64,000 nt of DNA from Ruegeria lacuscaerulensis (GTDB taxonomy: Bacteria; Pseudomonadota; Alphaproteobacteria; Rhodobacterales; Rhodobacteraceae): positions 62,001 to 126,000 of the forward strand of contig NZ_WPZL01000010.1 in NCBI RefSeq assembly GCF_013031245.1, given 5' to 3'. The notes beneath the pieces are model-generated. The model was not told the origin of the DNA. It did no database searches and was given only the letters and a program-made list of their open reading frames with translations. The translations under genes were made by a program, and so were the position numbers. Positions 36,233-52,845 of this stretch are shown one piece after another (position 1 is the stretch's first letter; each line of letters starts with the position of its first letter).

Positions 36233-36530
36233 GGACTTTGGCATGCTCAAACGCATGTGTTTCCAATCCAGCGAACCTCTTGGAATGCGATCTGTTGCTA
36301 GTTTTGGTGATCTTTCGCTAAGTTGAAACCATCGTGCCAATTGCAACGCGGGTTTCAACACCGGGTAGGACCTCTGAGGACCCCATCCATCAGATGCTGG
36401 GGTTGATCGCCCAGGGTTAAATGCACCGCTCTGACAAGATTTCCAAAATTATGCTAACCTTGGCTGAAGGCATTATTCATCGGGTTGCATCCATCGCGCC
36501 CTTGTCCTGACTTTGAACGAACTTATAGCC

Positions 36531-37517
36531 ATGGAACTTGCTATCGCAATTGGCCTGATCGTCCTGAAGGTCGCCATCCTGATCGCGGCTCTGCTGCTGC
36601 TGCCGCTACCGCTGGTCTGGCTTGAACGCAAGATCGCCGGGCACATCCAACAGAGAATGGGTCCAATGCGTGTTGGGTGGCACGGTTTATTGCAGCCATT
36701 GGCCGACGGCATCAAATTGTTGACCAAAGAGGATCATATTCCCGCAGATGCCGATCGGCTGATATTCAAACTCGCCCCGGTTCTGGCAATGCTGCCGCCG
36801 TTTGTCGTGTTCGTCGCGATACCCTTTGGCGAGAGCGTTTCGGTATTGGGTCACGAAATCACGTTGTACGTCTCGGACATGAATGTGGCCCTTCTGTTCG
36901 TCTTCGCGGTGATCGGGATCGAGGTCTATGGGGTCATTTTTGGTGGTTGGGCTTCCAACAGCAAATACTCCGTTCTGGGTGGGCTGAGAACCTGCGCCCA
37001 GATGATCAGCTATGAGATTCCGATGGGCTTTGCCGTCATCGGCGTGGTGATGCTGGCACAGTCCATGAGCCTGCTCGATATCGTGCGCGCGCAGGCGGAT
37101 ATGTGGAACGTGGTGTATCAGCCTGTTGGGTTCTTCGTCTTCTTCGTTGCCGGGTTGGCCGAGGCTCAGCGCATTCCCTTTGATCTGGCCGAGGCCGAAG
37201 GCGACTTGGGTGCGGGATTTCACACAGAATACAGCGGCATCCGGTTCATCTTCTTCATGGTCAGCGAATATGTGGTGATGGTACTGGTCTCGGTCCTGAC
37301 GGTCATTTTGTTCTTTGGCGGCTGGAACGGCGTGCTAATCCCCTTGCCGCCGATCCTTTGGTTCATACTGAAAGTGGCCTTTTTCATCTATGTCTTTATG
37401 TGGTTCCGCTTCACTTTCCCGCGATACCGCTATGATCAGTTGATGGAGATCGGGTGGAAAGTCTTGCTTCCGCTATCACTGGCGAACATAATGATAACCG
37501 GGGTTGTTTTCCTATGA
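36531..37517 (+). CDS. nuoH: Complex I subunit NuoH
   Basis: 328 residues from ATG 36531 (TTG 36513 is an alternative; neither has a good ribosome-binding site). This membrane subunit forms part of the quinone channel: PLPLVWLERKIAGHIQQRMG P, QPLADGIKLLTKED, VYGVIFGGWASNSKYSVLGG, RTCAQMISYEIPMG, and AEAEGDLGAGFHTEYSGIRF. The AEAExxL..GFHTEYSG loop is conserved, though with Gly-Asp where Ser/Ala-Glu is common. nuoH and nuoI stand alone here on the plus strand, opposite the other twelve nuo-type genes. The stop overlaps nuoI. Confidence 0.93.
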   Translation: MELAIAIGLIVLKVAILIAALLLLPLPLVWLERKIAGHIQQRMGPMRVGWHGLLQPLADGIKLLTKEDHIPADADRLIFKLAPVLAMLPPFVVFVAIPFGESVSVLGHEITLYVSDMNVALLFVFAVIGIEVYGVIFGGWASNSKYSVLGGLRTCAQMISYEIPMGFAVIGVVMLAQSMSLLDIVRAQADMWNVVYQPVGFFVFFVAGLAEAQRIPFDLAEAEGDLGAGFHTEYSGIRFIFFMVSEYVVMVLVSVLTVILFFGGWNGVLIPLPPILWFILKVAFFIYVFMWFRFTFPRYRYDQLMEIGWKVLLPLSLANIMITGVVFL

Positions 37518-38092
37518 GGGCAACCATGATCGACGATGTAGACAAGCGGCAAGGCTGGATTGGGTGGGCTTTCTTCGCCGACCTTGGCGATGCGCTGGTG
37601 CTGACGTTCAGCTATATGCTGTCGCGACCGGTGACCGAGCAATATCCTGACAAGGAAAAATGGCTACCCTATTCGCGCTATCGCGGCCACCATTTCCTCA
37701 AGCGTAACGAAGAAGGTGAGATAAACTGCGTCGCCTGTGAACTTTGCGCCAAAATCTGCCCCTGCGATTGCATCACCGTTGTTCCCTACGAGGACGAAAA
37801 CGGTGCGCGCCACCCCAAGGTGTTCGACATAGATACGGCGCGGTGCCTGTTTTGCGGGCTTTGCGAGGACGCCTGCCCGGCGGACGCCATCGCGCTGGGG
37901 CAACAGTACGAATTTTCCAGCTACGACTCGGCCCAACTGGTGGTGGATCGGGATACGCTCCTGACGAAGCCCGGCAAGGCTGAAACCGGCGGCGGTGTAG
38001 TAAACGCACGTCTGGAAACCATAGACGGGGTTCACGTGAAGACCGCGCAGGAGGCCGGATACAATTGGTGGCGGAATATTCGTCGCAAATGA
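37514..38092 (+). CDS. nuoI: Complex I subunit NuoI (2[4Fe-4S])
   Basis: 192-residue peripheral ferredoxin subunit carrying clusters N6a and N6b between NuoG/NuoB and the membrane. The two motifs are INCVACELCAKICPCDCITV and ARCLFCGLCEDACPADAIAL. ATG 37514 overlaps the nuoH stop by four bases; an internal ATG at 37526 is a possible alternative. The C-terminus (WWRNIRRK) is basic. Next downstream is a CBS-domain gene. Confidence 0.93.
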   Translation: MRATMIDDVDKRQGWIGWAFFADLGDALVLTFSYMLSRPVTEQYPDKEKWLPYSRYRGHHFLKRNEEGEINCVACELCAKICPCDCITVVPYEDENGARHPKVFDIDTARCLFCGLCEDACPADAIALGQQYEFSSYDSAQLVVDRDTLLTKPGKAETGGGVVNARLETIDGVHVKTAQEAGYNWWRNIRRK

Positions 38093-38168: not shown

Positions 38169-38609
38169 ATGTTCGTTTCCGACATTTTGCAGTTGAAAGG
38201 CTCAGAGGTGATTTCGGTGAGCCCGGATACAACGATGGTCGAGGTGCTTAGACTCTTCCACGAAAATCAAATCGGCCTGGGCATCGTAAGTACGACGCCG
38301 GCTCAAGTATTAGGCACGGTTTCAGAGCGTGATTTTTGCAATGCTGTGGCGCAACGTGGTGCCATGGTCGCCAATTTACCCGTGTCGGAAATCATGCGCA
38401 GCGACATATCCACCTGTTCCAAGGATGACTTGCTGCCAAAGGTTTCGGCAATAATGACCCAGGAACGGACACGGCACGTTCTGGTGATGGACGGTGATAC
38501 GCTTGCCGGGGTGGTCAGCATCGGTGACGTAGTCAAGGCGCGCCTGGACGAAGCGCTGAGGACGCAAAAAGAACTGCATGCATATATCGCGGGAACCGGG
38601 TACCACTGA
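38169..38609 (+). CDS. CBS-domain pair protein
   Basis: 146 residues from ATG 38169, four bases after AAGGAGGT. It contains two CBS motifs: EVISVSPDTTMVEVLRLFHE with VLGTVSERDFCNAVAQRGA, and DISTCSKDDLLPKVSAIMTQ with HVLVMDGDTLAGVVSIGDVV. CBS pairs usually bind AMP, ATP, SAM or NAD(H). It is the third gene of the nuoH-nuoI unit and convergent with nuoG (20 bp apart). A role in tuning this complex I to energy charge or redox state is suggested only by position. Confidence 0.85.
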   Translation: MFVSDILQLKGSEVISVSPDTTMVEVLRLFHENQIGLGIVSTTPAQVLGTVSERDFCNAVAQRGAMVANLPVSEIMRSDISTCSKDDLLPKVSAIMTQERTRHVLVMDGDTLAGVVSIGDVVKARLDEALRTQKELHAYIAGTGYH

Positions 38610-38629: not shown

Positions 38630-41107
38630 TCAACCGTCCGTTTTACGGACCTCGACGCGGCATGGATATTCACCATTCTTCATCAGGCTGTTGAGCCGCA
38701 AGCTCCGATAGCTTTCCGGCACAAACACCAGCCCGTCGGGAAACCGCGGATTAATCTTCAGGCGGGCCGTCAGGTGCCCTGTAGTTGACGTCACCACAAC
38801 CATTTGATTGGCTTCAATCCCCCGCTCTTCGGCTTCCCTGACACTCATCTCCACGTAAGGCTCATCTGCAACCGTAGCAAGCGTGGCCGAATGTTCGGAG
38901 AAATATCCCCCGTAAAAAAGCCCGTTTCCCGTGGCCAGCGCCAGCCCTTCCACATCTGCCCCATTGGCCGTTTCTGGGACCAAAAGCGATCTGTCCAGGG
39001 GTCGCTGCTGCGCTGATGTGAAAGCTCCATTCGGTCCAATCTGGGCGAGCGAAAGACCGGAATATGCGGGGTTCGTTCTGGTGATTTCGCCAAAAACACC
39101 TGCTTGATCAGAGACTTCCAGCGGCGTATCTCCAAGTGACGCAATCCACTCGAATATTTCAATATTGCTTTGCGCTGTGAATACCGGAGTACGGAATTTT
39201 CCAACGACCTGAACCCGTCCTTCATTGTTGGTGAAGGTTCCGGTCTCTTCTCCATGTGCCGCCGAAGGCAGAACCACGTCCGCAAGTTCGGCAATGTCCG
39301 TCTGCACCCAATCCTGTACGATCAAAAGGTCCACGTTCTTCAGCGCGTCAATAACACGGGCACGATCCGGGTAAGAACTGACAGGATCGGCCCCCGCAAC
39401 ATAAAGCGTGCTGATTTGGCCCTCGGCGCACTGGTCGAGCACTTCGCCGACCGTTGTAAGGGGTTTACCTTCTTTGCCAACTGCCATGTCCAGCGCACCC
39501 ATCTGGTTGGGGCGATCAAAAAGCCCCTGCAATGCAACGTTTTTTCCAAGTATATGCAAGCGCTGCAAAAGGCAGTGAAGCAACGAACAGACTGCTTCCG
39601 TATCCGGGTTTCTGAACAGGTCCATCCCAATAAGAACCGTTACGCTTGGGGCGGCGGATAACGCAGAGATCAGATCGCCAAGTCCTGCCTTTGCCTGCTC
39701 GTTCTGACCTCGCGCGCTTCCCGCCTCAAATTCGGAGGCGAATGGTTCGGCGTGCCCCTCGCGCCGGTCAAGCAGACCATCTAGCAACTCTGACAGAACG
39801 AAGGCCTCGGTTCCCGGAAGCATCCGCACTGAGGCGCGTGCATCTGCATCGAGCCGCGACGGGCGCGCCGACAGCAGGCAGAGTTGCGTCTCTCCACCTC
39901 GCACCGCGCCACGCAAAAGGTACTCGCTGACCGGGTTTTCCTCTGTCACATTGCTGCCGACGACAAGCGTGCAGTCGTTTTTGATAATCTCTTCGAAAGG
40001 CGCGCGCGTATAGAAATCGCGTAACAGCGGACCAAGCGCATCGGGAAAATCGAAACGCGAAGACACCGCGACCAATTCGCTGTCAAATGTTCCCTGCATC
40101 AGGCGCCCGAACTGAAACAGCGCTTCATTTGTCAATCGGGCGGAGGCAATCCCGGCCGCCCTGCCCCTGGCCCGCGACAGTCGCGTGCGCAAATACTCGC
40201 CCGCGTTCTCCCAGGACACTGGCGTCAGTGCTTCTCCCTGCCGAACCATCGGGCGCTTGACCCGGTCCGGGCTGGCAAATACGTCCATTCCGAACCGCCC
40301 ACGCACGCACAGGGTTTCCAGGTTCAGACCCTTGTCCCATTGCGACCGAACCCGCATGAATTCACCTTCGCGGGTGCCGACCGTCAGATGGCAACCGGTC
40401 CCGCAATGAGCACAGATCGTGTCAGTCTCAACCAGATCCCAAGGCCGCGATTTGTAGCGGTAGGGAAAACTCATCAGCGCCCCGACCGGGCAGACCTCGA
40501 TACAGTTGCCACATTGGTCACAACTGGCAAGGCTGCCCTCGAACCCGGTGACAGCGGTATCCATGCCTTTTTCGACGGTGCCCAGGGCCACAGCGCCGAC
40601 CACCTCTTCGCACATGCGCACACATCTTTGGCATTGGATGCAACGGTTGACGTTCATGATGACGACAGGGCTGAGCTGGATATCCTTGGAATGAAACACC
40701 CGTTTGGGATCGCGGAACATGCTTTCCCGAGGGCCATACTCCATCACCATGTCCTGCAGCTCGCATTCACCGCCCTTGTCGCAGATCGGACAGTCGAGCG
40801 GGTGGTTGGCCAGCAGCATGTCGAGCATCACCGAACGCGTTTCGGAGACCTGCTCGGTTGTTGTCCGCACCACCATTCCATCCATGACCGCCGTGGCGCA
40901 GGCGGGCTGCAGCTTGCCCTGCCCTTCGATCTCGACAAGACACATCCGGCACGAGGCCAGGACCGGCAACCGCTTCTGGAAGCAGAAGGTGGGAATGTCG
41001 ATGCCCAAGCCTTCCGCGGCGCTCAGGATTGTGGTTCCCGGCGGCACCTGCAGCTCATGGTCGTCGATGGTGATGGTCAGGGTAGTAACATCGCTGGTAT
41101 CGCTCAA
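38630..41107 (-). CDS. nuoG: Complex I subunit NuoG, FDH-like with extra N7-type cysteines
   Basis: About 825 residues. TTG 41107 is preferred: it overlaps the nuoF stop as TTGA, whereas a GTG at 41119 lies inside the GGAGGTG ribosome-binding site. The N-terminal [2Fe-2S] motif is CFQKRLPVLASCRMC with PACAT. Then come HPLDCPICDKGGECELQDMV (N5), NRCIQCQRCVRMCEEV, and CDQCGNCIEVCPVG. An additional set ICAHCGTGCHLTVG with LCVRGRFG is the FDH-type N7 site, absent from mitochondrial-type enzymes. The rest is a molybdopterin-oxidoreductase-like domain (VLPSAAHGEETGTFTNNEGR) ending with an aspartate-decarboxylase-like fold. Confidence 0.93.
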   Translation of the reverse strand: MSDTSDVTTLTITIDDHELQVPPGTTILSAAEGLGIDIPTFCFQKRLPVLASCRMCLVEIEGQGKLQPACATAVMDGMVVRTTTEQVSETRSVMLDMLLANHPLDCPICDKGGECELQDMVMEYGPRESMFRDPKRVFHSKDIQLSPVVIMNVNRCIQCQRCVRMCEEVVGAVALGTVEKGMDTAVTGFEGSLASCDQCGNCIEVCPVGALMSFPYRYKSRPWDLVETDTICAHCGTGCHLTVGTREGEFMRVRSQWDKGLNLETLCVRGRFGMDVFASPDRVKRPMVRQGEALTPVSWENAGEYLRTRLSRARGRAAGIASARLTNEALFQFGRLMQGTFDSELVAVSSRFDFPDALGPLLRDFYTRAPFEEIIKNDCTLVVGSNVTEENPVSEYLLRGAVRGGETQLCLLSARPSRLDADARASVRMLPGTEAFVLSELLDGLLDRREGHAEPFASEFEAGSARGQNEQAKAGLGDLISALSAAPSVTVLIGMDLFRNPDTEAVCSLLHCLLQRLHILGKNVALQGLFDRPNQMGALDMAVGKEGKPLTTVGEVLDQCAEGQISTLYVAGADPVSSYPDRARVIDALKNVDLLIVQDWVQTDIAELADVVLPSAAHGEETGTFTNNEGRVQVVGKFRTPVFTAQSNIEIFEWIASLGDTPLEVSDQAGVFGEITRTNPAYSGLSLAQIGPNGAFTSAQQRPLDRSLLVPETANGADVEGLALATGNGLFYGGYFSEHSATLATVADEPYVEMSVREAEERGIEANQMVVVTSTTGHLTARLKINPRFPDGLVFVPESYRSLRLNSLMKNGEYPCRVEVRKTDG

Positions 41108-42369
41108 TGAAACGGGCACCTCCCTTCGTCGATATGGGTGACAAATTCGTCCCGGAAATGCTCCAGCGACGCCCGCAGTCCCATCGCCGCGCCATCGCCC
41201 AAAGCACAGAAAGTGTTACCGAAAATGCCGCTGCACAGCCCCTCCAACTGATCGAGGTCATTTGGCGCGCCTTCGCCCGCCTCGATCCGGCGCAGAATCT
41301 TGACCACCCAGTCCAGCCCTTCGCGGCAGGGTGTGCATTTCCCGCAGCTTTCATGGTGAAAAAACTCGATAATCCGGGTCGCAACCTTGACGATGCAGGT
41401 GCGGTCATCGATCACGATGACCCCCGCTGAACCCAACATGGAACCGGCGGCGGCCAGCGAGTCGAAGTCCATCCCAACATCCAGCCCGCTCTCAGGGATT
41501 AACGGCGCAGACACGCCACCGGGGATAACCGCCTTGATCCGGTGCCCCTCGGGCGGCCCTCCTCCGTAATCATCGACCAATTCACGCAGCGGGATACCCA
41601 TCGGAAGCTCGTAGAGGCCGGGCTTACGCAGATGGCCGGACAGACAGTAAAGCTTGGGTCCCGGGCTTTTCTCGGGTCCGATCCCGCGAAACCAATATGC
41701 GCCGCGTTCGATGATCGCGGGCACACAGGCCAGCGTCTCAACATTGTTGATGACCGTAGGACTTTCATATAGCCCCGCGACCGCCGGGAAGGGTGGTTTC
41801 AGTTTTGGCTGTGCGCGGCGGCCTTGCAGAGATTCCAGCATCGCGGTTTCTTCACCGCAGATATAGGCGCCGGCGCCTTCGTGTATATGGACGTCGAAAC
41901 TGAAATCCGACCCCATTATGCGGCGCCCGAGATACCCCTGTTCCCGCGCCTCCGAGATCGCTGCTTCCAAGATCCTGATCGCCTTCACGTATTCGCCGCG
42001 AACGTAGACATAAGCGGTTTCCGCCCCGATCGCGTAGGCGCAGATGGCCATCCCCTCAATCAACAGATGCGGATCCTCTTCCATGATGATCCGGTCCTTG
42101 AATGTGCCCGGCTCACCCTCATCCGCATTGCAGCAGAGGTATTTCGGCTTCTCCGCGCCTTTCGGTACAAAGCTCCACTTGAGCCCGGTCGGAAACCCCG
42201 CGCCGCCGCGCCCGCGCAGGCCCGAGTCTTTGACAATTTCTATGGTCTCTTCAGGGGTGTATTCCTTTAACACCTTGGCAAGCGCACTATACCCGCCAGT
42301 GGTCTCATAGACGCTCAACCGCTGGCTGTCGGCAATACCGACATTCTTGAGCAGGACAGCCTCAGTCAT
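41104..42369 (-). CDS. nuoF: Complex I subunit NuoF (NADH/FMN)
   Basis: 421-residue NADH-oxidising subunit. GLRGRGGAGFPTGLKWSFVP binds NADH, CCNADEGEPGTFKDR and GAYICGEETAMLESLQGRR bind FMN, and FFHHESCGKCTPCREG with GNTFCALGDG supplies the N3 [4Fe-4S] cysteines. It overlaps nuoE by eight bases. All catalytic residues seen argue for true NADH oxidation rather than a ferredoxin- or F420-linked complex. Confidence 0.95.
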   Translation of the reverse strand: MTEAVLLKNVGIADSQRLSVYETTGGYSALAKVLKEYTPEETIEIVKDSGLRGRGGAGFPTGLKWSFVPKGAEKPKYLCCNADEGEPGTFKDRIIMEEDPHLLIEGMAICAYAIGAETAYVYVRGEYVKAIRILEAAISEAREQGYLGRRIMGSDFSFDVHIHEGAGAYICGEETAMLESLQGRRAQPKLKPPFPAVAGLYESPTVINNVETLACVPAIIERGAYWFRGIGPEKSPGPKLYCLSGHLRKPGLYELPMGIPLRELVDDYGGGPPEGHRIKAVIPGGVSAPLIPESGLDVGMDFDSLAAAGSMLGSAGVIVIDDRTCIVKVATRIIEFFHHESCGKCTPCREGLDWVVKILRRIEAGEGAPNDLDQLEGLCSGIFGNTFCALGDGAAMGLRASLEHFRDEFVTHIDEGRCPFH

Positions 42370-42853
42370 CCCCCACCCTCCCGGTGTTTCGCAAAGCCGT
42401 CAGCAATTCGTCGATCCGCGCCGCATCGAGGTTGCCGTGGTAGTCGTCACCAACCTGCATCACCGGCGCCATCTCACACGCGCCCAGGCATTCCACCGTA
42501 GAAAGTGTGAACAGCCCATCCCCGGTCGTGCCACCCTTTTCAATGCCAAGCACCTGTTCCATATGCGCCTGCAACTCCTCAGCGCCGCGCAGCATGCAGG
42601 ACAGGTTGTTGCAAAGCTGCAAGTGGAACCGGCCCACCTGTTCTGTGTGGTAGAGTGTGTAAAAGGTGGCCAGCTCATAAACCCAGATCCGTTCCACGCC
42701 AAGGATATCGGCCACCTCTTCCAGCACCTCGCCGGTCAGAACGCCGCGCTCTTTCTGCGCGATATATAGCGCCGGCATGATGGCCGATCGCTGGTCGGGA
42801 TACCGCGCCGCCGCCGCCTCGATCCGCATACGCATGTCCATTGGAGCGTTCAC
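42362..42853 (-). CDS. nuoE: Complex I subunit NuoE
   Basis: 163-residue thioredoxin-like [2Fe-2S] subunit (cluster N1a). Ligands are in LCNNLSCMLRGAEEL and VECLGACEMAPVMQVGDDYH. The N-terminus (AAARYPDQRSAIMPALYIAQ KERG) is the usual helical module. Start 42853 overlaps the nuoD stop as ATGA. Confidence 0.94.
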   Translation of the reverse strand: MNAPMDMRMRIEAAAARYPDQRSAIMPALYIAQKERGVLTGEVLEEVADILGVERIWVYELATFYTLYHTEQVGRFHLQLCNNLSCMLRGAEELQAHMEQVLGIEKGGTTGDGLFTLSTVECLGACEMAPVMQVGDDYHGNLDAARIDELLTALRNTGRVGDD

Positions 42854-44064
42854 TTGTCGACCTCCGCCATCACCGGGTCCAGACTGCCCAGCACCGCGAT
42901 CATGTCAGCAAGGTAATGGGCGTTTTTCGTACCGTAGAGCGCCTGGAGATTGACAAAGGACGGGGCCCGAACCTTCATCCGGAATGGTTTCGGGCTGCCA
43001 TCGCTGACGATATAGAACCCAAGTTCGCCCTTCGGGGCCTCGATGGCGGAATAGACCTCGCCGGCAGGGACTTTGAAGCCATAGGCCGAAAGGTCGAAAT
43101 GCTGGATCAGCGCCTCCATCGAGTTGTGGACCTTGTCCTTGTCGACCGGGAAGGCCACTGTAGGAATATCTGCCAGAAATCGGCCTTCGGGCATCTGCCT
43201 GAGGCATTGTTCGATGATCCTGACGCTTTCGCGCATTTCTTCGACCCGACAGCGCCAACGGGCGTAGCAATCACCCTCCTCTCGGGTAATCACATCAAAT
43301 TCGACCTGATCGTAAATCTCATAGGGTTCATCCTTGCGAATGTCCCAATCCACGCCCGAGGCCCTCAGGTTTGGACCACTGAGCCCAAGGTCGATTGCAT
43401 CCTCGGGCTCAATTACGCCGATACCTCTGGTGCGTTTGATGAACATCCGGTTCTTTTCAACCAGCCGTTCATAGTCGCGGATACGGTTGGGGAAGATATC
43501 GCAGAACTCTCTGATCTTGCCCGCAAATTCCACGGGCAAATCCTCGCGCACGCCACCGACCCGACAATAAGAGGTATGCATCCGCGCGCCAGTGACCATC
43601 TCCATCAGGTCCATGATCATTTCCCGTTCGCGCATCGCGTAAAGCAGCGCGGTCATTGCGCCCAAATCCATCGGCAATGCGCCGGTGATCAGCAGATGCC
43701 CCGACAGCCGCGCCAACTCGGCCATGATGACCCGGATATACTGCGCGCGAACAGGTGCCTCAATTCCCAGCAGCTTTTCCACCGCCATCGCAAAGGCCAG
43801 ATTGTTGGACGGTGGACAGACGTAATCCAGCCGGTCGGTCAGCGGAAAGATCTGCGTATAGGTGAAGGTCTCGGACAGCTTTTCCGTGCCGCGATGCAGA
43901 TAGCCGATATGTGGGTCGACCCGCTCGACATATTCACCGTCCATTTCCAGCACCAGCCGCAGAACCCCGTGCGTACTTGGATGCTGCGGTCCGAGGTTCA
44001 GCAGCACCTCCTTGGTATCCGGCAGTCCGCCCGGTGGCGGCCTGAGTTCTGTGGCTTCGGTCAT
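42850..44064 (-). CDS. nuoD: Complex I subunit NuoD
   Basis: 404-residue quinone-site subunit, separate from NuoC. LNLGPQHPSTHGVLRLVLEM DG, HIGYLHRGTEKLSE and DRLDYVCPPSNNLAF hold the conserved HPSTHG and Tyr region; SGHLLITGALPMDLGAMTA and GPNLRASGVDWDIRKDEPYE follow. The C-terminus SLDPVMAEVDK keeps the Asp position of the ancestral Ni-Fe hydrogenase fold. ATGA overlap with nuoC. Confidence 0.95.
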   Translation of the reverse strand: MTEATELRPPPGGLPDTKEVLLNLGPQHPSTHGVLRLVLEMDGEYVERVDPHIGYLHRGTEKLSETFTYTQIFPLTDRLDYVCPPSNNLAFAMAVEKLLGIEAPVRAQYIRVIMAELARLSGHLLITGALPMDLGAMTALLYAMREREMIMDLMEMVTGARMHTSYCRVGGVREDLPVEFAGKIREFCDIFPNRIRDYERLVEKNRMFIKRTRGIGVIEPEDAIDLGLSGPNLRASGVDWDIRKDEPYEIYDQVEFDVITREEGDCYARWRCRVEEMRESVRIIEQCLRQMPEGRFLADIPTVAFPVDKDKVHNSMEALIQHFDLSAYGFKVPAGEVYSAIEAPKGELGFYIVSDGSPKPFRMKVRAPSFVNLQALYGTKNAHYLADMIAVLGSLDPVMAEVDK

Positions 44065-44612
44065 AATTTATCTCCGGTGCCGCCGGGGATGTCCTTGGTC
44101 TCAAGATCAGGCCGCGTTGGCGGCACCCCTTCAGCACCAAAGGGGTTCAACTCATCCCTGTAACCTCTGAGCGGAAAGTCCTTGCGCTGCGGAAACCCTT
44201 CGAACCCCTCCCACATATAGATGCGACGCAGATCCGGGTGGCCATCGAAGGTGATGCCATACATGTCCCACGCTTCGCGCTCGTGCCAGTTGGCGGTACG
44301 CCAGATGCTGGCGACGCTGGCGATATGGGGCGGATCGTCCAACCGGCATTTGAGGCGAACGCGCCATTTGTCGGACAGAGAATACAGATGGTAGACGACT
44401 TCGAATCTGGGCGTGTCCGGCAGGTAGTCGACCCCGCATATGTCCGAAAGAAAATTGAAGCCCAGTTCGTCCTTCAGGAAGCGGCAGATATCTACGATGA
44501 TTTCCGGTGAAACTGTAAATACATGGATTCCATGCGCCACACCGGTGTATCGAACTGTATTGCCGAACCGGGTTTCGAGCCGGGCAACAAATGGGTCCGG
44601 CGGGATGGTCAT
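44061..44612 (-). CDS. nuoC: Complex I subunit NuoC
   Basis: 183 residues from ATG 44612, which overlaps the nuoB stop by four bases. [26 protein letters not shown] and [20 protein letters not shown] are standard 30-kDa subunit motifs, and [20 protein letters not shown] follows. It is not fused to NuoD, unlike the E. coli enzyme. Confidence 0.94.
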
Positions 44613-45103
44613 GGTCCGACGGCCCGACCCAGCGGCGTATCCGCAAGCGCCTCGGATTTCTTGATTTTCTCCTGCAGCAGAAGAAAGCCGTGCATCAGCG
44701 CCTCGGGGCGCGGCGGGCAACCGGGGACATGCACGTCCACCGGCACGAAGGTCTCGGACCCCTGCACGACCGCATAGGTGTTGTAGACCCCGCCCGAGAT
44801 TGCGCAGGTGCCCATGGCGATAACCCAACGCGGTTCGGGCATCTGGTCGTAAAGGCGACGTATCACTGGGGCGAATTTTCGTGTCACCGTACCGGCGATG
44901 ATCATAACGTCGGATTGGCGTGGAGAGGGTCGAAACACCACTCCGAACCGGTCCAGGTCATAGCGCGCGCATCCGGCCGAGATCATCTCGATCGCACAGC
45001 AGGCGATGCCGAAAGTTTCGGGCCAGAGTGCTGATTTGCGGCTCCAGCGGACAATCTGATCGGTTGTGGTGAACAGCACGCTGTCACGGATTACGTTTCC
45101 CAT
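44609..45103 (-). CDS. nuoB: Complex I subunit NuoB
   Basis: 164-residue subunit holding cluster N2. Start ATG 45103 follows AAAGGAGCG. Ligands are the tandem cysteines of [26 protein letters not shown] and [15 protein letters not shown]. It overlaps nuoA by 13 bases and nuoC by four. Confidence 0.95.
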
Positions 45104-45456
45104 TCCAACGCTCCTTTCAACCAGGCGTAAGCAAACCCAACCAGCAGCAGGACAATGAAAACGAACATCTCGATATAACCGACGATGCCGATCTCTTTCA
45201 GTACGACGGCCCATGGGAAGAGAAACATCGCCTCGACATCGAAAACAACGAACAGGATCGCGATCAGGAAGAACTGCGCTTTGAACTGACCCGCAGCCGC
45301 CTCACCCGCAGGGTCCATGCCGCATTCATACGGCATGTTCTTGGCGGGGTACGGGTTGGAGGGGCGCAGCAGTGACGAAACAAAAAGCGTTGCTGTCACC
45401 ACGAGGATTACCCCGGCAACCATGATGAGAACAGGCAGAAATTCAAGTCCAGTCAT
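45091..45456 (-). CDS. nuoA: Complex I subunit NuoA
   Basis: 121-residue membrane subunit with three helices and the conserved loop [20 protein letters not shown]. Start ATG 45456 has only a weak ribosome-binding site. It is the first gene of the A-to-G block, about 200 bp after nuoN, and is preceded by a short leader ORF overlapping a hairpin, so it may have its own promoter. Confidence 0.94.
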
Positions 45457-45658: not shown

Positions 45659-47098
45659 TCATCCGCCCAAGACCGACATTTGCGCCAGATTCAAAAACCA
45701 CGCCGGAAGCAGACCGATCACGATGGTTCCGACGACCGCAATCGCCAGCGCCAGTTTCAAGCCTGGCGTAAACGCCAGCTCGAACTTTCCCGCCGGATCG
45801 CGCATGTAGATCACCATGACGATACGAATGTAGAAATAAGCCGCAACCACACTCAGCAGCACTGCGATGACAGAAATCGTCACATGTCCCCCTTCAATCA
45901 ATGCGACCAGCACATAAAACTTTGCAAAGAACCCCGCCGTAGGCGGAATACCGGCCAAGGCGAACAGAAACAGCAGCATCGACAGGGCAAGCGCAGGGTG
46001 CGATCTGGAAAGACCTGAAAAGTCATCAATGGCTTCACCCCGGCCAACCTCGGAACGCATCGCGATTACAGCAGCAAAAATACCGATATTCATGAAGGTA
46101 TAGATCAACAGGTAAAGCATCACACTTGCCGCACCATCCGGGCCGCCCGCCACAATGCCCAGTAAGACAAAGCCGGAATGGGCGATGCTGGAATATGCCA
46201 GCAGGCGCTTGATGTTGTCCTGAACCAGCGCCACGAAACTGCCGAGCGCCATTGTGAAAACAGCAATTACGGCAACAACAATCCAGACGTCCGTCGCAGC
46301 CAGTAGGGGGTTCAGGACAACCCGCAGGATTACAGCGAACCCCGCAGCCTTTGGCCCCACGGACATGAAAGCGGTAATGGGGGTAGGCGCACCCTCGTAG
46401 ACATCGGGAACCCACATGTGAAACGGCACCGCACCAACCTTGAAAACCAATCCAGCCACAATGAACACGACAGCCAGCAACAGACCGGGGTCGCGTTGGC
46501 TCGCTGTTACGGCTGTGGCAAGAGCATCGAGTTCCGTGGTGCCGGTCAAACCATAGATCAACGACACCCCGTACAGAAATACGCCCGTCGAAACCGCGCC
46601 CAGGATCACATATTTCAGCGCCGCTTCGTTCGAGCGCACCTCGCGCCGCAATAGCCCCGTCAGAACATAAGTGCACAGCGCCATCAGCTCGAGCCCGACG
46701 TAGATCGACAGCAAATCGTTGGCTGAGGCCATGATCATCATGCCGGACAACGCAAATAGCAGCAGCACGTTGTATTCTCCGCGCTGGACCCGTTCGATCT
46801 CGACATAACGACGCGACAGCAAGAGGGTCAGCACGGTGGAAATGTAGAAAATGGCCTTGAAAAAGGCGGAATAGCGGTCGGACGCGAACATGCCGGAATA
46901 GACCAGCAGGTTCTGATCCGCCAACGCCCAGGTCAGCGCGGCGGCGACAAGAACCACGGCAATCGCGGCCAAGTCCAGAATATACCCGCGCTCGGGGCGT
47001 ACAAACAGGCTCAGGATCAACAGAACGCAGGCCCCGGTGATCACTACGATCTCGGGCAGGCTGACCAGAACCGACTGGAGGAGTTGCGCCTGGTTCAC
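45659..47098 (-). CDS. nuoN: Complex I subunit NuoN
   Basis: 479-residue antiporter-like subunit of about 14 helices. SIYVGLELMALCTYVLTGL keeps the TM5 glutamate, and AGLVFKVGAVPFHMWVPDVY EGAPTPITAFM keeps the TM7 lysine and the HxWxPD loop. DNIKRLLAYSSIAHSGFVLL is typical. Start overlaps the nuoM stop (ATGA). It is the last gene of the J-to-N block and is followed by the nuoA leader. Confidence 0.93.
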   Translation of the reverse strand: MNQAQLLQSVLVSLPEIVVITGACVLLILSLFVRPERGYILDLAAIAVVLVAAALTWALADQNLLVYSGMFASDRYSAFFKAIFYISTVLTLLLSRRYVEIERVQRGEYNVLLLFALSGMMIMASANDLLSIYVGLELMALCTYVLTGLLRREVRSNEAALKYVILGAVSTGVFLYGVSLIYGLTGTTELDALATAVTASQRDPGLLLAVVFIVAGLVFKVGAVPFHMWVPDVYEGAPTPITAFMSVGPKAAGFAVILRVVLNPLLAATDVWIVVAVIAVFTMALGSFVALVQDNIKRLLAYSSIAHSGFVLLGIVAGGPDGAASVMLYLLIYTFMNIGIFAAVIAMRSEVGRGEAIDDFSGLSRSHPALALSMLLFLFALAGIPPTAGFFAKFYVLVALIEGGHVTISVIAVLLSVVAAYFYIRIVMVIYMRDPAGKFELAFTPGLKLALAIAVVGTIVIGLLPAWFLNLAQMSVLGG

Positions 47099-48570
47099 TC
47101 CGCACCCTCCTTGTCATGCACCTGTGTCAGCAAGTGATCGGCCGAAGTCTGGATGATGCTAAGGAATGGTTTCGGATAGAGGCCGATCCAGATCACCAGA
47201 ACGGCAAGAGGCAGGATCGAGGCAAGCTCGCGCCTGTCGAGATCCCAGAAGTCGTACTGCTCTTCCACTCGCGCGCTGCCAAGGGCCACGCGCCTGAACA
47301 TGCTCAGCAGATATGCGGCTGCCAGAACGGCCCCAAGGATCGAAATGCCCGCCAGCAGCGGATTTGCGGCAAAGGCGCCCGAAAGGATGAGCAATTCGCC
47401 GACAAATGAATTCAACCCAGGCAGAGCCATTGATGACAGCGTAAACAACCCAAGAAATATGGAGCAAAACGGCGCTACCTTCATCAGCCCGCCATAATCG
47501 GCGATGCTGCGGCTGTGCGTGCGTTCGTACATCAGCCCGACGAACAAAAACAGCGCGCCGGTGGTTATGCCGTGGTTGAGCATCTGCAGAATTCCGCCCG
47601 TAACCCCCCGGCTGTTCAGGGCAAAAATGCCGAGCGTGACAAAGCCCATATGAGAGATGCTGGAATAGGCCACCAGTTTTTTCAGATCGTCCTGCGCCAG
47701 TGCCAGCAAACCGCCATAGACAATCGCAATGGCGGACAGGATAAGCATGAAGGTGGAAAAATAGACAGACGCCTCGGGCAGCATCGGCAGGGAGAAACGC
47801 AGAAAACCGTAGGTGCCCATCTTCAGGAGAACTCCTGCCAGTATGATACTGCCTGCGGTTGGTGCCTCAACATGGGCATCGGGCAGCCAGGTGTGCACCG
47901 GCACCATCGGCACCTTCACAGCAAAGGCGATAAGGAAGGCAAAGAACAGCCAGGCTTGTGTAACGAACGCGAGATCCGCGTTCATCAGGGCGAGAATGTC
48001 AAAGGTCCTGCCGCCCTGAAAATACAGCACGATAATTCCGATCAGGAACAGCACGCTGCCCGCTAAGGTGTAGAGGAAGAACTTGAACGCCGCATACACA
48101 CGGCGTTCTCCGCCCCATATACCGATGATCGCGTACATCGGGACCAGCATCGCCTCCCAGAACACGTAAAACAGGAACAGATCGAGCGCCGAAAAGACGC
48201 CCAGCATCAGTGTCTGCATGGCAAGCAGACTGACCATGAAGGCCTTTACCATCGTCTCGATGGCATTCCACGATGCGAGAACGCAGATCCAGCCAAGTAG
48301 CGCGGTGAGAAAAACAAACAGAATTGATATGCCGTCAACCGCGACGGCATATTTGATCCCCAGCGCGGGTATCCAATTCCGCTCCTCGGCGAACTGCATC
48401 TCATGCGTGGACGTGTCGAAACCCAAAAGCAAAAGCAGACAGAGCACAAAATCGACAAGCGTGACCGCAAGCGCGGTCCATTTAATCGTCTTCGCATCCC
48501 GCATGAACAGAACAGCAACAACCCCCGCCGTCGGCAGGAAGATGATGAGGCTGAGCAGCGGAAACCCCAT
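47095..48570 (-). CDS. nuoM: Complex I subunit NuoM
   Basis: 491 residues from ATG 48570 (AGGGGGC upstream). LFLFYVFWEAMLVPMYAIIG IWGG, AFAVKVPMVPVHTWLPDAHV EAPTAGSIILAGVLLKMGTY and DDLKKLVAYSSISHMGFVTL are diagnostic for NuoM, with the key Glu and Lys intact. It lies between the MrpD/NuoL-like gene and nuoN. Confidence 0.94.
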   Translation of the reverse strand: MGFPLLSLIIFLPTAGVVAVLFMRDAKTIKWTALAVTLVDFVLCLLLLLGFDTSTHEMQFAEERNWIPALGIKYAVAVDGISILFVFLTALLGWICVLASWNAIETMVKAFMVSLLAMQTLMLGVFSALDLFLFYVFWEAMLVPMYAIIGIWGGERRVYAAFKFFLYTLAGSVLFLIGIIVLYFQGGRTFDILALMNADLAFVTQAWLFFAFLIAFAVKVPMVPVHTWLPDAHVEAPTAGSIILAGVLLKMGTYGFLRFSLPMLPEASVYFSTFMLILSAIAIVYGGLLALAQDDLKKLVAYSSISHMGFVTLGIFALNSRGVTGGILQMLNHGITTGALFLFVGLMYERTHSRSIADYGGLMKVAPFCSIFLGLFTLSSMALPGLNSFVGELLILSGAFAANPLLAGISILGAVLAAAYLLSMFRRVALGSARVEEQYDFWDLDRRELASILPLAVLVIWIGLYPKPFLSIIQTSADHLLTQVHDKEGAE

Positions 48571-48578
48571 GCCGCCCC

Positions 48579-50339
48579 CTAAAGCCACACAACGGCGAAT
48601 ATTGCGATTGCAGCGATCACGCCTGCGATCATTCCTACCGCGTAGTGAGTAACGATACCGGTCTGAACGCGACGCAGTTTCTCTCCGCCGCGCAGCACCT
48701 TGCGGGCGACACCGTTCACGATCGCATCGATCCCGCCGAGATCGGCTCGAAGCCCTGCCTGAGCCGAACGGTGCATGAAGGGCAACAGTGATTTCTCCGA
48801 CACCGCGCTTACCGCCTGCTCATAGCGCGCGAACGGTTTTTCCGCGAAGCGCATGAACGCCCGCGCGCCCTTGCGATAGAACCAATCCGTGTCGATGCTG
48901 ATCGTGTCCTCGGGGTCCAGGGCTTTCAGGAACAGTACGAAGCCAAGCGCCGTGAACATCAGGATGCCCATGCTCTCGGTCACATGCGGCCAGGTATAGG
49001 GGTGATAGTCGACCTCGTACGGCAAAAGCGCATAAAGCGGTGCGGGATAGACGCCGATGCCGATGCACAACGCTGCAGCGATGCTCATGGCGACCAGCAT
49101 GTTGCGCGGCGGCTCTGGCGGGCGCAGACCAGAATCTTTTCCAAAGAACATGTAATACGGCAGTTTCAGGCCGGTATGCAGGAATGTCCCCGACGACGCC
49201 AACGTCAGCAGCAGCATCACAACCGCCCGGTGATCGTACCCGGCAGCGGACACCACCATCGACTTGGTCACGAAGCCCGAAAAGAAGGGAAAGGCGGAAA
49301 TCGCAAAGGCCCCGATCATGTAAAGCGTCACAGTCAGCGGCATGGTCCGGTAGAGCCCGCCTAGCTCGGTCAGTTTGCGCCGTCCCGTGACATAGATCAC
49401 CGCACCTGCGCCCATGAACAGCAGTGCCTTGTAGAGGATATGGGCAAAGGCGTGGCTGGTCGCGCCATTCAGCGCCATCTCGGTTCCGATGCCGATCCCG
49501 GCCACCATGTATCCGACCTGACTGACGATGTGGTAAGCCAGCAGGCGGCGGCAATCGTTTTCCATCACCGCATAGATCACCCCGTAGATCGCCATCGCGG
49601 TGCCGAACCAGACCAGCAGTTCCGCCCCCGGAAAGCCACGGGCCAGCACGTAGACGGCGGTCTTGGTGGTGAAGGCGCTCAGGAACACTGCGCCGGTGAC
49701 GGTGGCCTCGGGATAGGCATCCGTCAGCCAGGCGTTCAATGGTGGCACGGCAGCGTTAAGTGTAAAGCCGATCAGAATCAGATAGGCGGCAGCGCCCAGC
49801 GGCCCCTCAATCGGGCCGAACATAACCGATCCGGTCGCCGCGCCATGCAGGATGACCCCGCCCAACAGCGCAATGCCCCCAGTGAGATGCACCATCAGAT
49901 AGCGGAACCCGGCCTGCACCGCCCTTTCATCACCCGCAGCGAAGATGAGATAGGCCGAGGCAAAGGCCATGCCTTCCCAAAACACGAACAGCGTCAGGTA
50001 GTCGCCGGCAAATACCACCCCAAGTGCGCTGCCGACATAGAGGAAGGCTGCAACATGCTGGCCTGGTCGCTTCAGATGCAGCGCGTAGACCATGCCAATC
50101 AGCGACATGATCGTGAAGACGCTGGCAAAGACCAGGCTGAGCTTGTCGACCCGTGCAATCAGCAGTTCCTGCCCCAGAAACCAAACAGTGCCATAGGAGC
50201 CCGGTTGCGCAATCGCAACGACGCCGATGGCAAGGGCCGGGATCAGCAGTTGCCAGAACTTTCGCACCGTACCGTTCAGAAACGGGATCACCAAGGCTCC
50301 GACGAAGAACAGGATTGTTGGGTGCACGAACTCAGTCAT
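48579..50339 (-). CDS. MrpD/NuoL-like antiporter subunit with NuoL-type C-terminal tail
   Basis: 586 residues from ATG 50339 (MTEFVHPTILFFVGALVIPF). It stands where nuoL is expected but reads like MrpD in the core: LTLFVFWEGMAFASAYLIF keeps the TM5 glutamate (E122), and SAFTTKTAVYVLARG keeps the TM8 lysine (K226). The TM7 motif is FTLNAAVPPLNAWLTDAY, so the usual K-S-A...PLHxWLPD lysine and histidine are both asparagine (about N195 and N202). The C-terminus (AQAGLRADLGGIDAIVNGVA, LRRVQTGIVTHYAVGMIAGV) resembles the NuoL lateral-helix end and last helix. Possibly a structural clamp with impaired pumping. Confidence 0.85.
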   Translation of the reverse strand: MTEFVHPTILFFVGALVIPFLNGTVRKFWQLLIPALAIGVVAIAQPGSYGTVWFLGQELLIARVDKLSLVFASVFTIMSLIGMVYALHLKRPGQHVAAFLYVGSALGVVFAGDYLTLFVFWEGMAFASAYLIFAAGDERAVQAGFRYLMVHLTGGIALLGGVILHGAATGSVMFGPIEGPLGAAAYLILIGFTLNAAVPPLNAWLTDAYPEATVTGAVFLSAFTTKTAVYVLARGFPGAELLVWFGTAMAIYGVIYAVMENDCRRLLAYHIVSQVGYMVAGIGIGTEMALNGATSHAFAHILYKALLFMGAGAVIYVTGRRKLTELGGLYRTMPLTVTLYMIGAFAISAFPFFSGFVTKSMVVSAAGYDHRAVVMLLLTLASSGTFLHTGLKLPYYMFFGKDSGLRPPEPPRNMLVAMSIAAALCIGIGVYPAPLYALLPYEVDYHPYTWPHVTESMGILMFTALGFVLFLKALDPEDTISIDTDWFYRKGARAFMRFAEKPFARYEQAVSAVSEKSLLPFMHRSAQAGLRADLGGIDAIVNGVARKVLRGGEKLRRVQTGIVTHYAVGMIAGVIAAIAIFAVVWL

Positions 50340-50586
50340 AGTAGTCTTCGGGCCGCATGAGCCCGCCCTGATGACCGAGGAATTTGGAAACAAATATGAT
50401 CGCCACGCAGGATGCGAACCCATATACTGCCGACCAGCCTGGCAATCGTTCCCATAGGTATTCAACATGTTCGCGGGGAACCAAAAAATCTGCCACGACG
50501 ATCAGTGCCAGCACAAGATAGAACAGGCGAAGGCGGAGATTGGCATATTTTGAGTCTCCAAAAAAACTGACGATACGCGCGATCAT
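50332..50586 (-). CDS. 84-residue two-helix membrane protein of the nuo locus
   Basis: MIARIVSFFGDSKYANLRLR is amphipathic and basic, followed by LFYLVLALIVVADFLVP and YGFASCVAIIFVSKFLG, two membrane segments, and an acidic tail ending RPEDYYD. The start overlaps the MrpD-like stop (ATGA) and the stop overlaps the next start by eight bases, so it is translated with them. I do not recognise it as a standard complex I subunit. It may be an adaptor holding the extra antiporter module. Confidence 0.8.
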   Translation of the reverse strand: MIARIVSFFGDSKYANLRLRLFYLVLALIVVADFLVPREHVEYLWERLPGWSAVYGFASCVAIIFVSKFLGHQGGLMRPEDYYD

Positions 50587-52043
50587 CTGACCACCTCCTC
50601 TGCCAATGTGATGAAATAGCCGGGGAAAATGCCCATCAAGAGTGACAGTATCCCTGTTGCGACCAGCGGCACCGTGACCAAGGGGATTTCACGAACGCGA
50701 CTATCCCCATCCGTTTCTTTACCAAAAAAGGCGATATAGCTGACTGGCAGGAAATAGGCGGCATTCAGGATCGAACTGACCAACAGCACGACCAGAAACA
50801 CGAATTGCCCCCCCTCGACCGAGCCCCATGCCAGATACCATTTGGATACAAACCCTCCGGCTGGCGGCACGCCGATCATGCCGAGCGACCCGACGAAGAA
50901 GGCGGCCATGGTCCAGGGCAGTTGCCGCCCGATGCCCCCCATCTCGCTGATCTTCCGTTTGCCCGTGGCGCAAAAGATCGAACCCGCACAAAAGAACAAC
51001 GTGATTTTGGAGAAGGCATGCGCGGCGATATGGATGATACCTCCGACCATTGCGACCGGCGAAAACAGGACCGCCCCGAGGATGATGTAGGACAGCTGAC
51101 TGACCGTGGAATACGCCAGCCGCGCCTTCAGATCATCGCGGGTCAGCGCGTATATCGACGCGGTCAGAATGGTGAACGAGGCCAGATAGGCCGTGGCGAT
51201 TGCAAGCCCCAGCGCGTCCATCAGCCCGGTGCCGAAAACATCGAACACCACGCGCAACACGCAAAAGACGCCCATTTTCACCACCGCAACGGCATGCAGA
51301 AGCGCACTGACAGGGGTCGGGGCCACCATCGCGGCGGGCAGCCAGGCATGTAACGGCATCAACGACGCCTTTGCGAACCCGAAGAGGTAGCAGAAATAGA
51401 CAACCGTCAGCAGAACCGGCGCGGTCTCCACCCCGGCCAGTAATCCGCCAGGAACAAAATCGAGCGTGCCTGCCAGGTGGTAGGTCAGCGCTATGGCTGC
51501 CAGCAAAGCGCTTTTTGATGCGCCCATCAGGTAGACGAGATATTTGCGGCTGCCCTCCCAGGCCTCGTCGTCCTCGTGGTGGTAAACCAGCGGATAGGTC
51601 ACGAGGCTCAACACTTCGTAGAAGATTACCAGCGTAAACAGATTGGCTGCGAACGCCCCTCCGACTGCGGCGGCAAGGCTAGCAGCAAAGCAGATGTAGA
51701 ACCGGGTCTGCGCATGCTCACCGAGGCTGCGCATATACCCGATCGTATAGATCGACGCGAAAATCCACAGCAGCGAGGAAATAGTGGCGAACACCATCCC
51801 CAGCGCGTCCACCCGGAATGCGAAATCGACCCCCGGCAGGATTTCGAAAAGAACGAGCTCATAAGTTCCGCCCGACAAAACCCGCGGCGCCATTGACGCA
51901 ACCAGTGCAAACAGCGCCACGGACGCGACGGGTGACACGAGGTCCCGTGGCCCAACGCGATCACGAAGATAAAGAACCAGACCTGACGCCAGTCCGGCGA
52001 CGGCGATGGCCAGAAGCGGCCTTATGGAAAAAACCGCCTCCAC
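50583..52043 (-). CDS. MrpD-like proton-antiporter subunit in complex I locus
   Basis: 486 residues from GTG 52043 (GAGGG five bases upstream). LFTLVIFYEVLSLVTYPLVY H keeps the TM5 glutamate (E143), and GFAKASLMPLHAWLPAAMVA PTPVSALLHAVAVVKMGVF keeps the TM7 lysine (K225), the histidine and the TM8 lysine (K256). It is closer to MrpD/monovalent-cation antiporter subunits than to NuoL, M or N. No other Mrp genes are present, so it belongs to the nuo complex. Together with the 586-residue paralogue it gives four antiporter-like subunits instead of three. Confidence 0.87.
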   Translation of the reverse strand: MEAVFSIRPLLAIAVAGLASGLVLYLRDRVGPRDLVSPVASVALFALVASMAPRVLSGGTYELVLFEILPGVDFAFRVDALGMVFATISSLLWIFASIYTIGYMRSLGEHAQTRFYICFAASLAAAVGGAFAANLFTLVIFYEVLSLVTYPLVYHHEDDEAWEGSRKYLVYLMGASKSALLAAIALTYHLAGTLDFVPGGLLAGVETAPVLLTVVYFCYLFGFAKASLMPLHAWLPAAMVAPTPVSALLHAVAVVKMGVFCVLRVVFDVFGTGLMDALGLAIATAYLASFTILTASIYALTRDDLKARLAYSTVSQLSYIILGAVLFSPVAMVGGIIHIAAHAFSKITLFFCAGSIFCATGKRKISEMGGIGRQLPWTMAAFFVGSLGMIGVPPAGGFVSKWYLAWGSVEGGQFVFLVVLLVSSILNAAYFLPVSYIAFFGKETDGDSRVREIPLVTVPLVATGILSLLMGIFPGYFITLAEEVVR

Positions 52044-52045
52044 CG

Positions 52046-52348
52046 CTACCCTCGCATGATCGTGATTTCATCGACTTTCAGCGTGGCCTTGTTCCGCACC
52101 AAGGCAACAAGGATGCCTAGAGCAATCGCAACTTCCGCTGCTGTAATCGCGATGATGAAGATTGCAAAAATACGGCCGCGGAAATCGTCGTGGAAATGGG
52201 CGAACGCGATGAAGTTGATGTTGACCGAGTTGAGCAGCAGTTCCAGCGACATCAGCACCACCAGAACATTGCGCCGTATCAGAACCCCGGCAGCGCCGAT
52301 CACGAACAGGATCACACCCAGAACGATATACCAAGACAGCGGCACCAT
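52046..52348 (-). CDS. nuoK: Complex I subunit NuoK
   Basis: 100-residue three-helix subunit. [20 protein letters not shown] and [19 protein letters not shown] carry the two conserved membrane glutamates homologous to MrpC. Start overlaps the nuoJ stop by one base, and the MrpD-like gene begins 3 bp downstream. Confidence 0.95.
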
Positions 52349-52845
52349 TAACGCGGCTCCTTCTGCGCCAACACAATGGCACCGATCAAAGCCACAAGCA
52401 GGATGACCGAGGCCACTTCGAAAGGCAGCAGGTAATCGGCAAACAGAGTCGTACCCAACTCACGAATCTCGCCGCCGGTCGTAGTCCCCGCGACGGTTTT
52501 CGGGAACCGCTGGCCCATCATGACCAGAACCAGCATCTCAATCCCTAACAGTGCCACCAGTCCGAGAGCGGCGAAGTTGCTTCCGGGCAAGAACCGCCTC
52601 AGCGACGCGTCGCGGATATCCAGCATCATGGTCACGAACAGGAAAAGGACCAGGATCGCGCCGACATAAACAAAGATCTGGATAACAGCGAGAAGCGGCG
52701 CCTGAAGCATCACGAAAATTGCCGAGATATTGATGAAACAAGCCATCAGGGCCACCGCGCTGTGGATTGGATTGCGCGCCAACACCACTCCCAGGGCCGC
52801 CGCCACGGCCCCAACTGCAAATATCAGAAAAAACCCCTGTTCCAT
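52348..52845 (-). CDS. nuoJ: Complex I subunit NuoJ
   Basis: 165 residues from ATG 52845 (GGGAG upstream). It has five hydrophobic segments: [40 protein letters not shown] and [21 protein letters not shown], including the pi-bulge helix motif [12 protein letters not shown]. It is the first gene of the minus-strand nuo run, so the promoter should lie at 52846-53180. Confidence 0.94.

What the first reader, a model, noticed from the sequence alone, without database searches (positions are those of the whole stretch)
48579..52043. No canonical NuoL; two MrpD-like subunits instead
Apart from NuoM and NuoN the locus encodes two further antiporter-like proteins (486 and 586 residues), both closer in motif to MrpD. 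No other Mrp genes (A, B, C, E, F, G) are present. A complex I with four antiporter-like modules would predict a changed H+/e- stoichiometry or Na+ coupling.
Basis: partly seen in the sequence, partly recalled or inferred. Interest (0 to 1): 0.82.

Follow-up and report, generated by a model that had tools for sequence, protein, structure and literature searches.

The report
Complex I with replaced distal subunit
This is a second, already described kind of bacterial respiratory complex I ("green" complex I) in which one large pump subunit is replaced by two; one of the two lacks a lysine that the other pump modules have, so the idea that it pumps extra protons is doubtful but can now be tested.

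Summary
The window encodes a complex I (NuoA-K, M, N) with no NuoL and two antiporter-like proteins, D1 (486 aa) and D2 (586 aa), between nuoK and nuoM. It is not new: it matches "green complex I" (Degli Esposti & Martinez Romero 2016, seen only through citing papers). In 77 of 80 named loci found with D2, D2 lies in a complex I operon. The genome also has a canonical complex I and a separate Mrp locus.

(1) D2 is not a plain MrpD: it aligns with NuoL end to end, including the lateral helix and last TM helix, so it probably takes NuoL's place, with D1 distal. (2) The TM7 lysine of the TM5-TM7 Glu-Lys pair is absent from D2 in 85 of 85 distinct complex-I-type copies, but present in D1 (70/70), NuoN (68/68) and NuoM (75/77). 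The second NuoM of 17 of 17 Nitrospirota "2M" loci lacks it too; one Desulfobacterota 2M locus keeps it in both. Four modules are therefore no ground for five protons. (3) An unannotated small protein, X (84 aa, two hydrophobic stretches), lies between D1 and D2 and is conserved.

Pumping was not tested; nothing found speaks for sodium.

The parts
50583..52043 (-). D1: 486-aa antiporter-like subunit (NF006236, 'putative monovalent cation/H+ antiporter subunit D'), no lateral helix; keeps TM5 Glu, TM7 Lys, TM8 His and Lys, TM10 His/His/Lys, TM12 Lys
50332..50586 (-). X: 84-aa protein with two hydrophobic stretches, overlapping the end of D1 and the start of D2; no Pfam, NCBIfam or PDB match; 'hypothetical protein' in an annotated relative
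48579..50339 (-). D2: 586-aa antiporter-like subunit (NF009310/PRK12668) with NuoL-like C-terminus
49755..49757 (-). Asn codon (AAC), residue 195 of D2 with the start Met counted, where the other antiporter-like modules have the TM7 Lys
48666..48887 (-). predicted lateral helix of D2 (residues 485-558, low confidence), followed by the last TM helix 563-585
   Evidence: coordinates computed from it
47095..48588 (-). NuoM, with TM7 Lys
45659..47098 (-). NuoN, with TM7 Lys
52046..52348 (-). NuoK
52348..52845 (-). NuoJ (start inferred)
45091..45456 (-). NuoA (start inferred)
44609..45103 (-). NuoB (start inferred)
44061..44612 (-). NuoC (start inferred)
42850..44064 (-). NuoD
42362..42853 (-). NuoE
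41104..42369 (-). NuoF (NADH/FMN)
38630..41119 (-). NuoG
36513..37517 (+). NuoH, opposite strand
37526..38092 (+). NuoI (start inferred)
38169..38609 (+). CBS-domain protein next to nuoHI; a similar gene also in 24 of 80 named loci

Best explanation
It is a green complex I: an NADH:quinone oxidoreductase kept beside the canonical one, in which NuoL is replaced by a three-gene cassette D1-X-D2 shared with an Mrp-type antiporter cluster. D2 takes NuoL's place next to NuoM, its lateral helix running along NuoM and NuoN, and D1 sits distal to D2. The redox arm works as usual. D1, NuoM and NuoN are ordinary gated proton modules. D2 keeps the proton-wire residues (TM8 Lys, TM10 His/Lys, TM12 Lys) and the TM5 Glu but has no TM7 Lys, so it cannot form the usual Glu-Lys pair and most likely passes the charge or proton signal on to D1 rather than acting as an independent gated pump; the ratio would then stay near 4 H+ per NADH. 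Shown: gene content, conservation, missing Lys, NuoL-like C-terminus. Inferred: subunit order, relay role, stoichiometry.
For: Full operon without NuoL; 77 of 80 named loci are complex-I-type and no gene in any of the 80 fetched stretches was assigned to NuoL; canonical nuo and Mrp elsewhere in the genome. D2 against NuoL by hhalign over residues 1-585, probability 100. TM15 Gly to TM16 Gln is 93 residues in D2; 86 is found in each of 12 canonical NuoL printed (three of them also show other Gly positions), against about +24 to +26 where an extra NuoM is spanned; predicted 74-residue lateral helix and last TM helix. TM7 position of complex-I-type D2: Asn in 82 and Ser or Cys in 3 of 85 distinct copies (window; 77 loci; L137; L230, L232, L234 and L253-L255; L231 and L233 left out as identical to L154 and L152). 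Controls with Lys: NuoL 30/30, D1 70/70, NuoN 68/68, NuoM 75/77, MrpD 58/58. TM7 Lys to Gln in Nqo13 abolishes NADH:UQ activity (PMC9802314, passages); opening the ion pair lowers the computed lateral proton-transfer barrier (PMC11496545, passages).
Against: No stoichiometry, structure or expression data here. TM5, TM8 and TM12 charges are kept in 77 of 77 D2 and TM10 in 76-77, which fits a working proton path. The lysine's necessity was shown in Nqo13, not in a NuoL- or D2-like module; the only NuoM of another operon (L260) also lacks it, so a module without it may work. The lateral-helix rule has an exception: L162 has the +26 insertion with one NuoM; L174 has it too but its contig ends in NuoM. 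The lateral helix is predicted at low confidence (pLDDT about 50-60) and no complex could be modelled. The tree places D2 with NuoL/MrpA, but on a long branch. Sequences are related, so 85 of 85 (84 groups at 97% identity, L231 and L233 joined to their twins) is not 85 independent events.
Confidence: 0.55

Rival explanations
1. Green complex I with four working pumps: D2 pumps too, by a path that does not need the TM7 Lys, giving 5 H+ per NADH, or letting the enzyme run in reverse toward low-potential acceptors.
For: Four antiporter-like modules are encoded; D2 keeps TM5 Glu, TM8 Lys, TM10 His and Lys, TM12 Lys in 76-77 of 77. Published proposal of 5-6 ions for such complexes (PMC9040806, section 10). 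A Desulfobacterota locus with L-M-M-N keeps the lysine in both NuoM and has the lateral-helix insertion, so four lysine-bearing modules do exist (L256).
Against: TM7 Lys missing in 85 of 85 D2 and in the second NuoM of 17 of 17 Nitrospirota 2M loci. D2 also lacks the TM6 Arg and Asp of NuoL (RVGD versus LTGG in the alignment).
Confidence: 0.25
2. Na+-linked complex I: the D1-X-D2 cassette brings Na+ (or K+) transport from an Mrp-type antiporter into complex I.
For: The same D1-X-D2 cassette sits in Mrp-type clusters; one was read in full and has MrpB, C, D, E, F, G. The host is probably a Ruegeria relative (D2 95% identical to Ruegeria sp. Ofav3-42), a marine genus (recalled).
Against: No MrpB, E, F or G in the window; many relatives are rhizobia, several from root nodules. 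No Na+ site was identified or looked for.
Confidence: 0.1
3. D1, X and D2 are an antiporter that merely shares the operon and does not belong to complex I.
For: Relatives of the pair stand in Mrp-type clusters; no close relative is in the PDB (best sequence matches MrpD 115 bits for D2 and an Mbh subunit 146 bits for D1).
Against: No NuoL in any of the 80 fetched stretches; D2 carries a NuoL-like lateral helix and last TM helix; MrpB, E, F and G are absent.
Confidence: 0.07

Closest known systems
Green complex I of rhizobia (Degli Esposti & Martinez Romero 2016, FEMS Microbiol Ecol fiw084; not held, known through PMC9040806, PMC7415380, PMC5419562)
   Same: Two MrpD-like subunits replace NuoL; second complex I beside the canonical one; same J-K-D1-X-D2-M-N-A-B-C-D-E-F-G order as an annotated Pararhizobium plasmid; D2 mostly 75-79% identical to rhizobial copies
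   Different: Host is probably a Ruegeria relative, not a rhizobium; nuoH-nuoI lie on the opposite strand with a CBS gene (their place in rhizobia was not established here)
2M complex I of Nitrospira (Chadwick et al. 2018; not held, known through citing papers)
   Same: Four antiporter-like modules; the second NuoM lacks the TM7 Lys in 17 of 17 loci, as D2 does
   Different: 2M keeps NuoL and has two NuoM; its NuoL has a lateral-helix insertion of about 24 residues
Complex_I_3 of Candidatus Manganitrophaceae (PMC9040806, section 10)
   Same: Same D1/D2 pair; D2 TM7 is Asn in L159 and L163
   Different: Adds a second NuoM (TM7 Ile) and a 26-residue lateral-helix insertion
Group 3 Mrp antiporter cluster (PMC7784846, passages: two NuoM/NuoL-like genes after mrpD); L043 here
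   Same: mrpD followed by D1-X-D2; that the published cluster is this one is inferred
   Different: Has MrpB, C, D, E, F, G and no redox subunits (L043); in the Mrp-type set 39 of 60 D2 keep the TM7 Lys (L137 moved out)

Membership tests
green complex I | nuo operon with two MrpD-like subunits in place of NuoL | tested here: met
green complex I | second operon beside a canonical complex I | tested here: met
   canonical D, E, F, G, H, I, J, K, L, M, N at G000:C1; A, B, C of that operon were not looked for
green complex I | gene order J-K-D1-D2-M-N followed by A-G | tested here: met
green complex I | additional 4Fe4S cluster in NuoG (figure legend in PMC4967309) | not tested
   PF04879 Fe4S4 domain matches NuoG 231-280, but this was not compared with canonical NuoG
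green complex I | raised expression in symbiosis (rhizobia) | not testable with these tools
   host is probably not a rhizobium; claim in PMC7415380
canonical complex I (NuoL) | NuoL above the TIGR01974 cut-off in the operon | tested here: not met
   151 and 185 bits versus 407.5
2M complex I | NuoL plus two NuoM | tested here: not met
   one NuoM, no NuoL
Mrp antiporter | full Mrp subunit set | tested here: not met
   no MrpB, C, E, F, G or separate MrpA in the window

The most novel reading that the evidence does not exclude
Added antiporter-like modules in complex I are often built without the TM7 ion-pair lysine (D2 of green complex I, the second NuoM of Nitrospirota 2M complexes, both in Manganitrophaceae), so these enlarged complexes have only three complete gated modules and would still pump 4 H+ per 2 e-; D1-X-D2, with an undescribed small subunit X, is a portable cassette that replaces a NuoL-type unit in complex I and in Mrp antiporters alike.
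Probability: 0.35. Interest if true: 0.8.

Novelty: new member of a known kind. Interest (0 to 1): 0.55.

Why it matters
Complexes with four or five antiporter-like subunits are proposed in print to pump 5-6 protons and to push electrons toward ferredoxin. If added modules lack the gating lysine, that bookkeeping is in doubt for those complexes. Natural modules with Asn, Ser, Cys or Ile in place of the lysine, set against a four-lysine 2M complex (L256), would also test what the Glu-Lys pair does. X would be a subunit missing from present models.

Tried and rejected
Rejected: "new kind of complex I" (green complex I is in print). Rejected: "every added module lacks the lysine": L256 (L-M-M-N) has Lys in both NuoM, and the single NuoM of another operon in the genome of L163 (L260) has Leu there, so loss is not confined to added modules. 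Rejected: a D2 lateral helix lengthened to span D1, as it is only about 7 residues longer than in NuoL. First assumed that D2 relatives mark complex I: of 58 loci (L040-L097) from 57 of the 67 other genomes of the host's class with a match, one was complex I and 57 were put in the Mrp-type group. Among these, L057 and L068 are short contigs with only D1-D2 and L054 shows no MrpA-like gene, so their context is not certain. One search read minus-strand loci on the wrong strand and was not used.

Counts to read with care: L137 was first put with the Mrp group by my rule and moved by hand. The two NuoM without Lys among 77 are the extra NuoM of L159 and L163. The pattern for lateral-helix length failed in 18 of 78 D2; of the other 60, 47 gave 74, 8 gave 75, 1 gave 72 and 4 (L159, L162, L163, L174) gave 100. 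It failed in 1 of 30 canonical NuoL (another gave 80) and gave 110, not examined, in 3 of 17 2M NuoL. X was found by phmmer at E<1e-3 in 66 of 72 complex-I-type and 49 of 60 Mrp-type loci; several misses look like my ORF picks in a wrong frame, others are divergent. Loci were chosen by similarity to D2, so they say nothing on how common green complex I is. D2 tree (window, 30 of the 78 complex-I-type loci and the 60 Mrp-type; midpoint root, uncertain): complex-I D2 nested among Asn-bearing Mrp-type D2, the 39 Lys-bearing Mrp-type D2 a separate clade.

Literature: in the listings of searches and the passages read I saw no mention of the missing lysine or of X, but none of these searches could rule it out, and the two papers most likely to mention them (Chadwick 2018, Degli Esposti & Martinez Romero 2016) are not held. 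Papers were seen as passages, and PMC9040806 also as section 10 in full. The helix numbers given to the first motif choices were recalled; PMC9802314 and PMC11496545 agree on TM5, TM7, TM8 and TM12.
Full report
What is there. On the minus strand the window carries, in order of transcription, nuoJ, nuoK, D1, X, D2, nuoM, nuoN, nuoA-nuoG; nuoH, nuoI and a CBS-domain gene lie beyond nuoG on the plus strand. D1 and D2 are the two proteins of the finding. Neither reaches the NuoL cut-off (185 and 151 bits against 407.5), and no MrpB, C, E, F, G or separate MrpA was found in the window. The genome (5.27 Mb, 106 contigs) holds a canonical nuo locus with NuoL, M, N and an Mrp locus on other contigs. 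D2 is 95% identical to that of Ruegeria sp. Ofav3-42, so the host is probably a Ruegeria relative.

Is it known? Yes. In 77 of 80 D2 stands in a complex I operon; in 3 (L144, L176, L178) in an Mrp-like cluster (with L137 assigned by hand). No gene of the 80 fetched stretches was assigned to NuoL. PMC9040806 (section 10) describes green complex I of rhizobia as having two MrpD-like subunits in place of NuoL, citing Degli Esposti & Martinez Romero 2016; PMC7415380 (passages) reports that work's view of it as a second complex I, upregulated in symbiosis in Rhizobium and Sinorhizobium. An annotated Pararhizobium plasmid shows the same gene order. D2 relatives also occur on 114 of 72,556 plasmid records, 96 of them Sinorhizobium, Rhizobium or Ensifer (complex I context not checked for these beyond).

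Where D1 sits. In complexes with a second NuoM the lateral helix is longer: 79 against 55 residues between fixed points in 14 of 17 Nitrospirota 2M NuoL (canonical: 28 of 30 at 55), and D2 of the two-NuoM Manganitrophaceae is 26 longer than most green D2. Green D2 itself is close to canonical length, so it should span NuoM and NuoN only, leaving D1 distal. L162, with the insertion and one NuoM, does not fit.

The missing lysine. Each antiporter-like module has a TM5 Glu-TM7 Lys pair and a terminal TM12 Lys or Glu, and NuoM-type modules a TM8 Lys (PMC9802314, PMC11496545; passages). In D2 the TM7 position is Asn in 77 of 77 complex-I-type loci, in L137, in the window and in three more Nitrospirota loci next to a NuoM hit (L230, L232, L234), and Ser, Cys, Cys in three divergent ones (L253-L255): no Lys in 85 of 85, L231 and L233 left out as duplicates. 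Lys is found in 30 of 30 NuoL, 70 of 70 D1, 68 of 68 NuoN, 75 of 77 NuoM and 58 of 58 MrpD. In the Mrp-type group D2 has Lys in 39, Asn in 20 and Ser in 1 of 60. The other charged residues of D2 are kept. In Paracoccus, K232Q at this position of Nqo13 left the enzyme unable to catalyse NADH:UQ oxidoreduction.

A parallel and a counter-example. 17 loci, one from each of 17 genomes with adjacent NuoM hits among 100 Nitrospirota genomes searched, have NuoL and two NuoM: the first NuoM has Lys in 17 of 17, the second Ile in 17 of 17. The extra NuoM of L159 and L163 also has Ile. Against this, the one adjacent pair I saw in the list of 99 genomes of the phylum of L133 has Lys in both NuoM and an extended NuoL helix (L256), and the only NuoM of L260 has Leu. 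So of three kinds of added module that look independent, two lack the lysine.

The small protein X. Between D1 and D2, overlapping both, lies an 84-aa ORF with two hydrophobic stretches. Relatives are found at the same place in 66 of 72 complex-I-type and 49 of 60 Mrp-type loci. dN/dS against eight relatives is 0.06-0.18, so it is very probably a real gene. It has no Pfam, NCBIfam or PDB match and is called hypothetical in the Pararhizobium record.

Reading. The cassette D1-X-D2 stands in for a NuoL-type unit. The conservative prediction is that D2 is a NuoL-position relay without the usual gate, D1 the distal pump, and the ratio about 4 H+ per NADH; the alternative of five protons is open. 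Nothing here measures pumping.

Noticed in passing
window 38169-38609 (+): CBS-domain protein (PF00571) beside nuoHI; a similar gene is in 24 of 80 named loci, including Acidobacteria and Aromatoleum; possibly a regulator.
   Followed up: partly
L043:2218-9855, and similar in most of L041-L097: Mrp-type clusters in which the NuoL-like part of MrpA seems to be replaced by D1-X-D2, with a separate MbhD/MbhE-like protein (read in full only in L043).
   Followed up: partly
L256 (genome of the phylum of L133; L-M-M-N): 2M-type complex I locus with TM7 Lys in both NuoM and a lateral-helix insertion: a four-lysine complex.
   Followed up: partly
L260 (genome of L163, Manganitrophaceae): NuoL-M-N operon whose only NuoM has Leu at the TM7 Lys position.
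   Followed up: no
L162 and L174: D2 with the +26 lateral-helix insertion although L162 has one NuoM (the L174 contig ends in NuoM).
   Followed up: partly
L144 (Nitrospinae MAG): D2 nests in the complex-I clade (support 0.35) but the locus is Mrp-like: possible swap back.
   Followed up: no
L176, L178 (Candidatus Methanoperedenaceae MAGs): Archaeal Mrp-like clusters with D1-D2 (X seen in L176), D2 with Asn at TM7.
   Followed up: no
window 53181-54122 (-): SDR/NAD-epimerase-like protein just upstream of nuoJ; may resemble NDUFA9-type accessory proteins (recalled, not tested).
   Followed up: no
window 35318-36232 (+): Protein that looks like a LysR-type regulator, upstream of nuoH (read from sequence only).
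   Followed up: no
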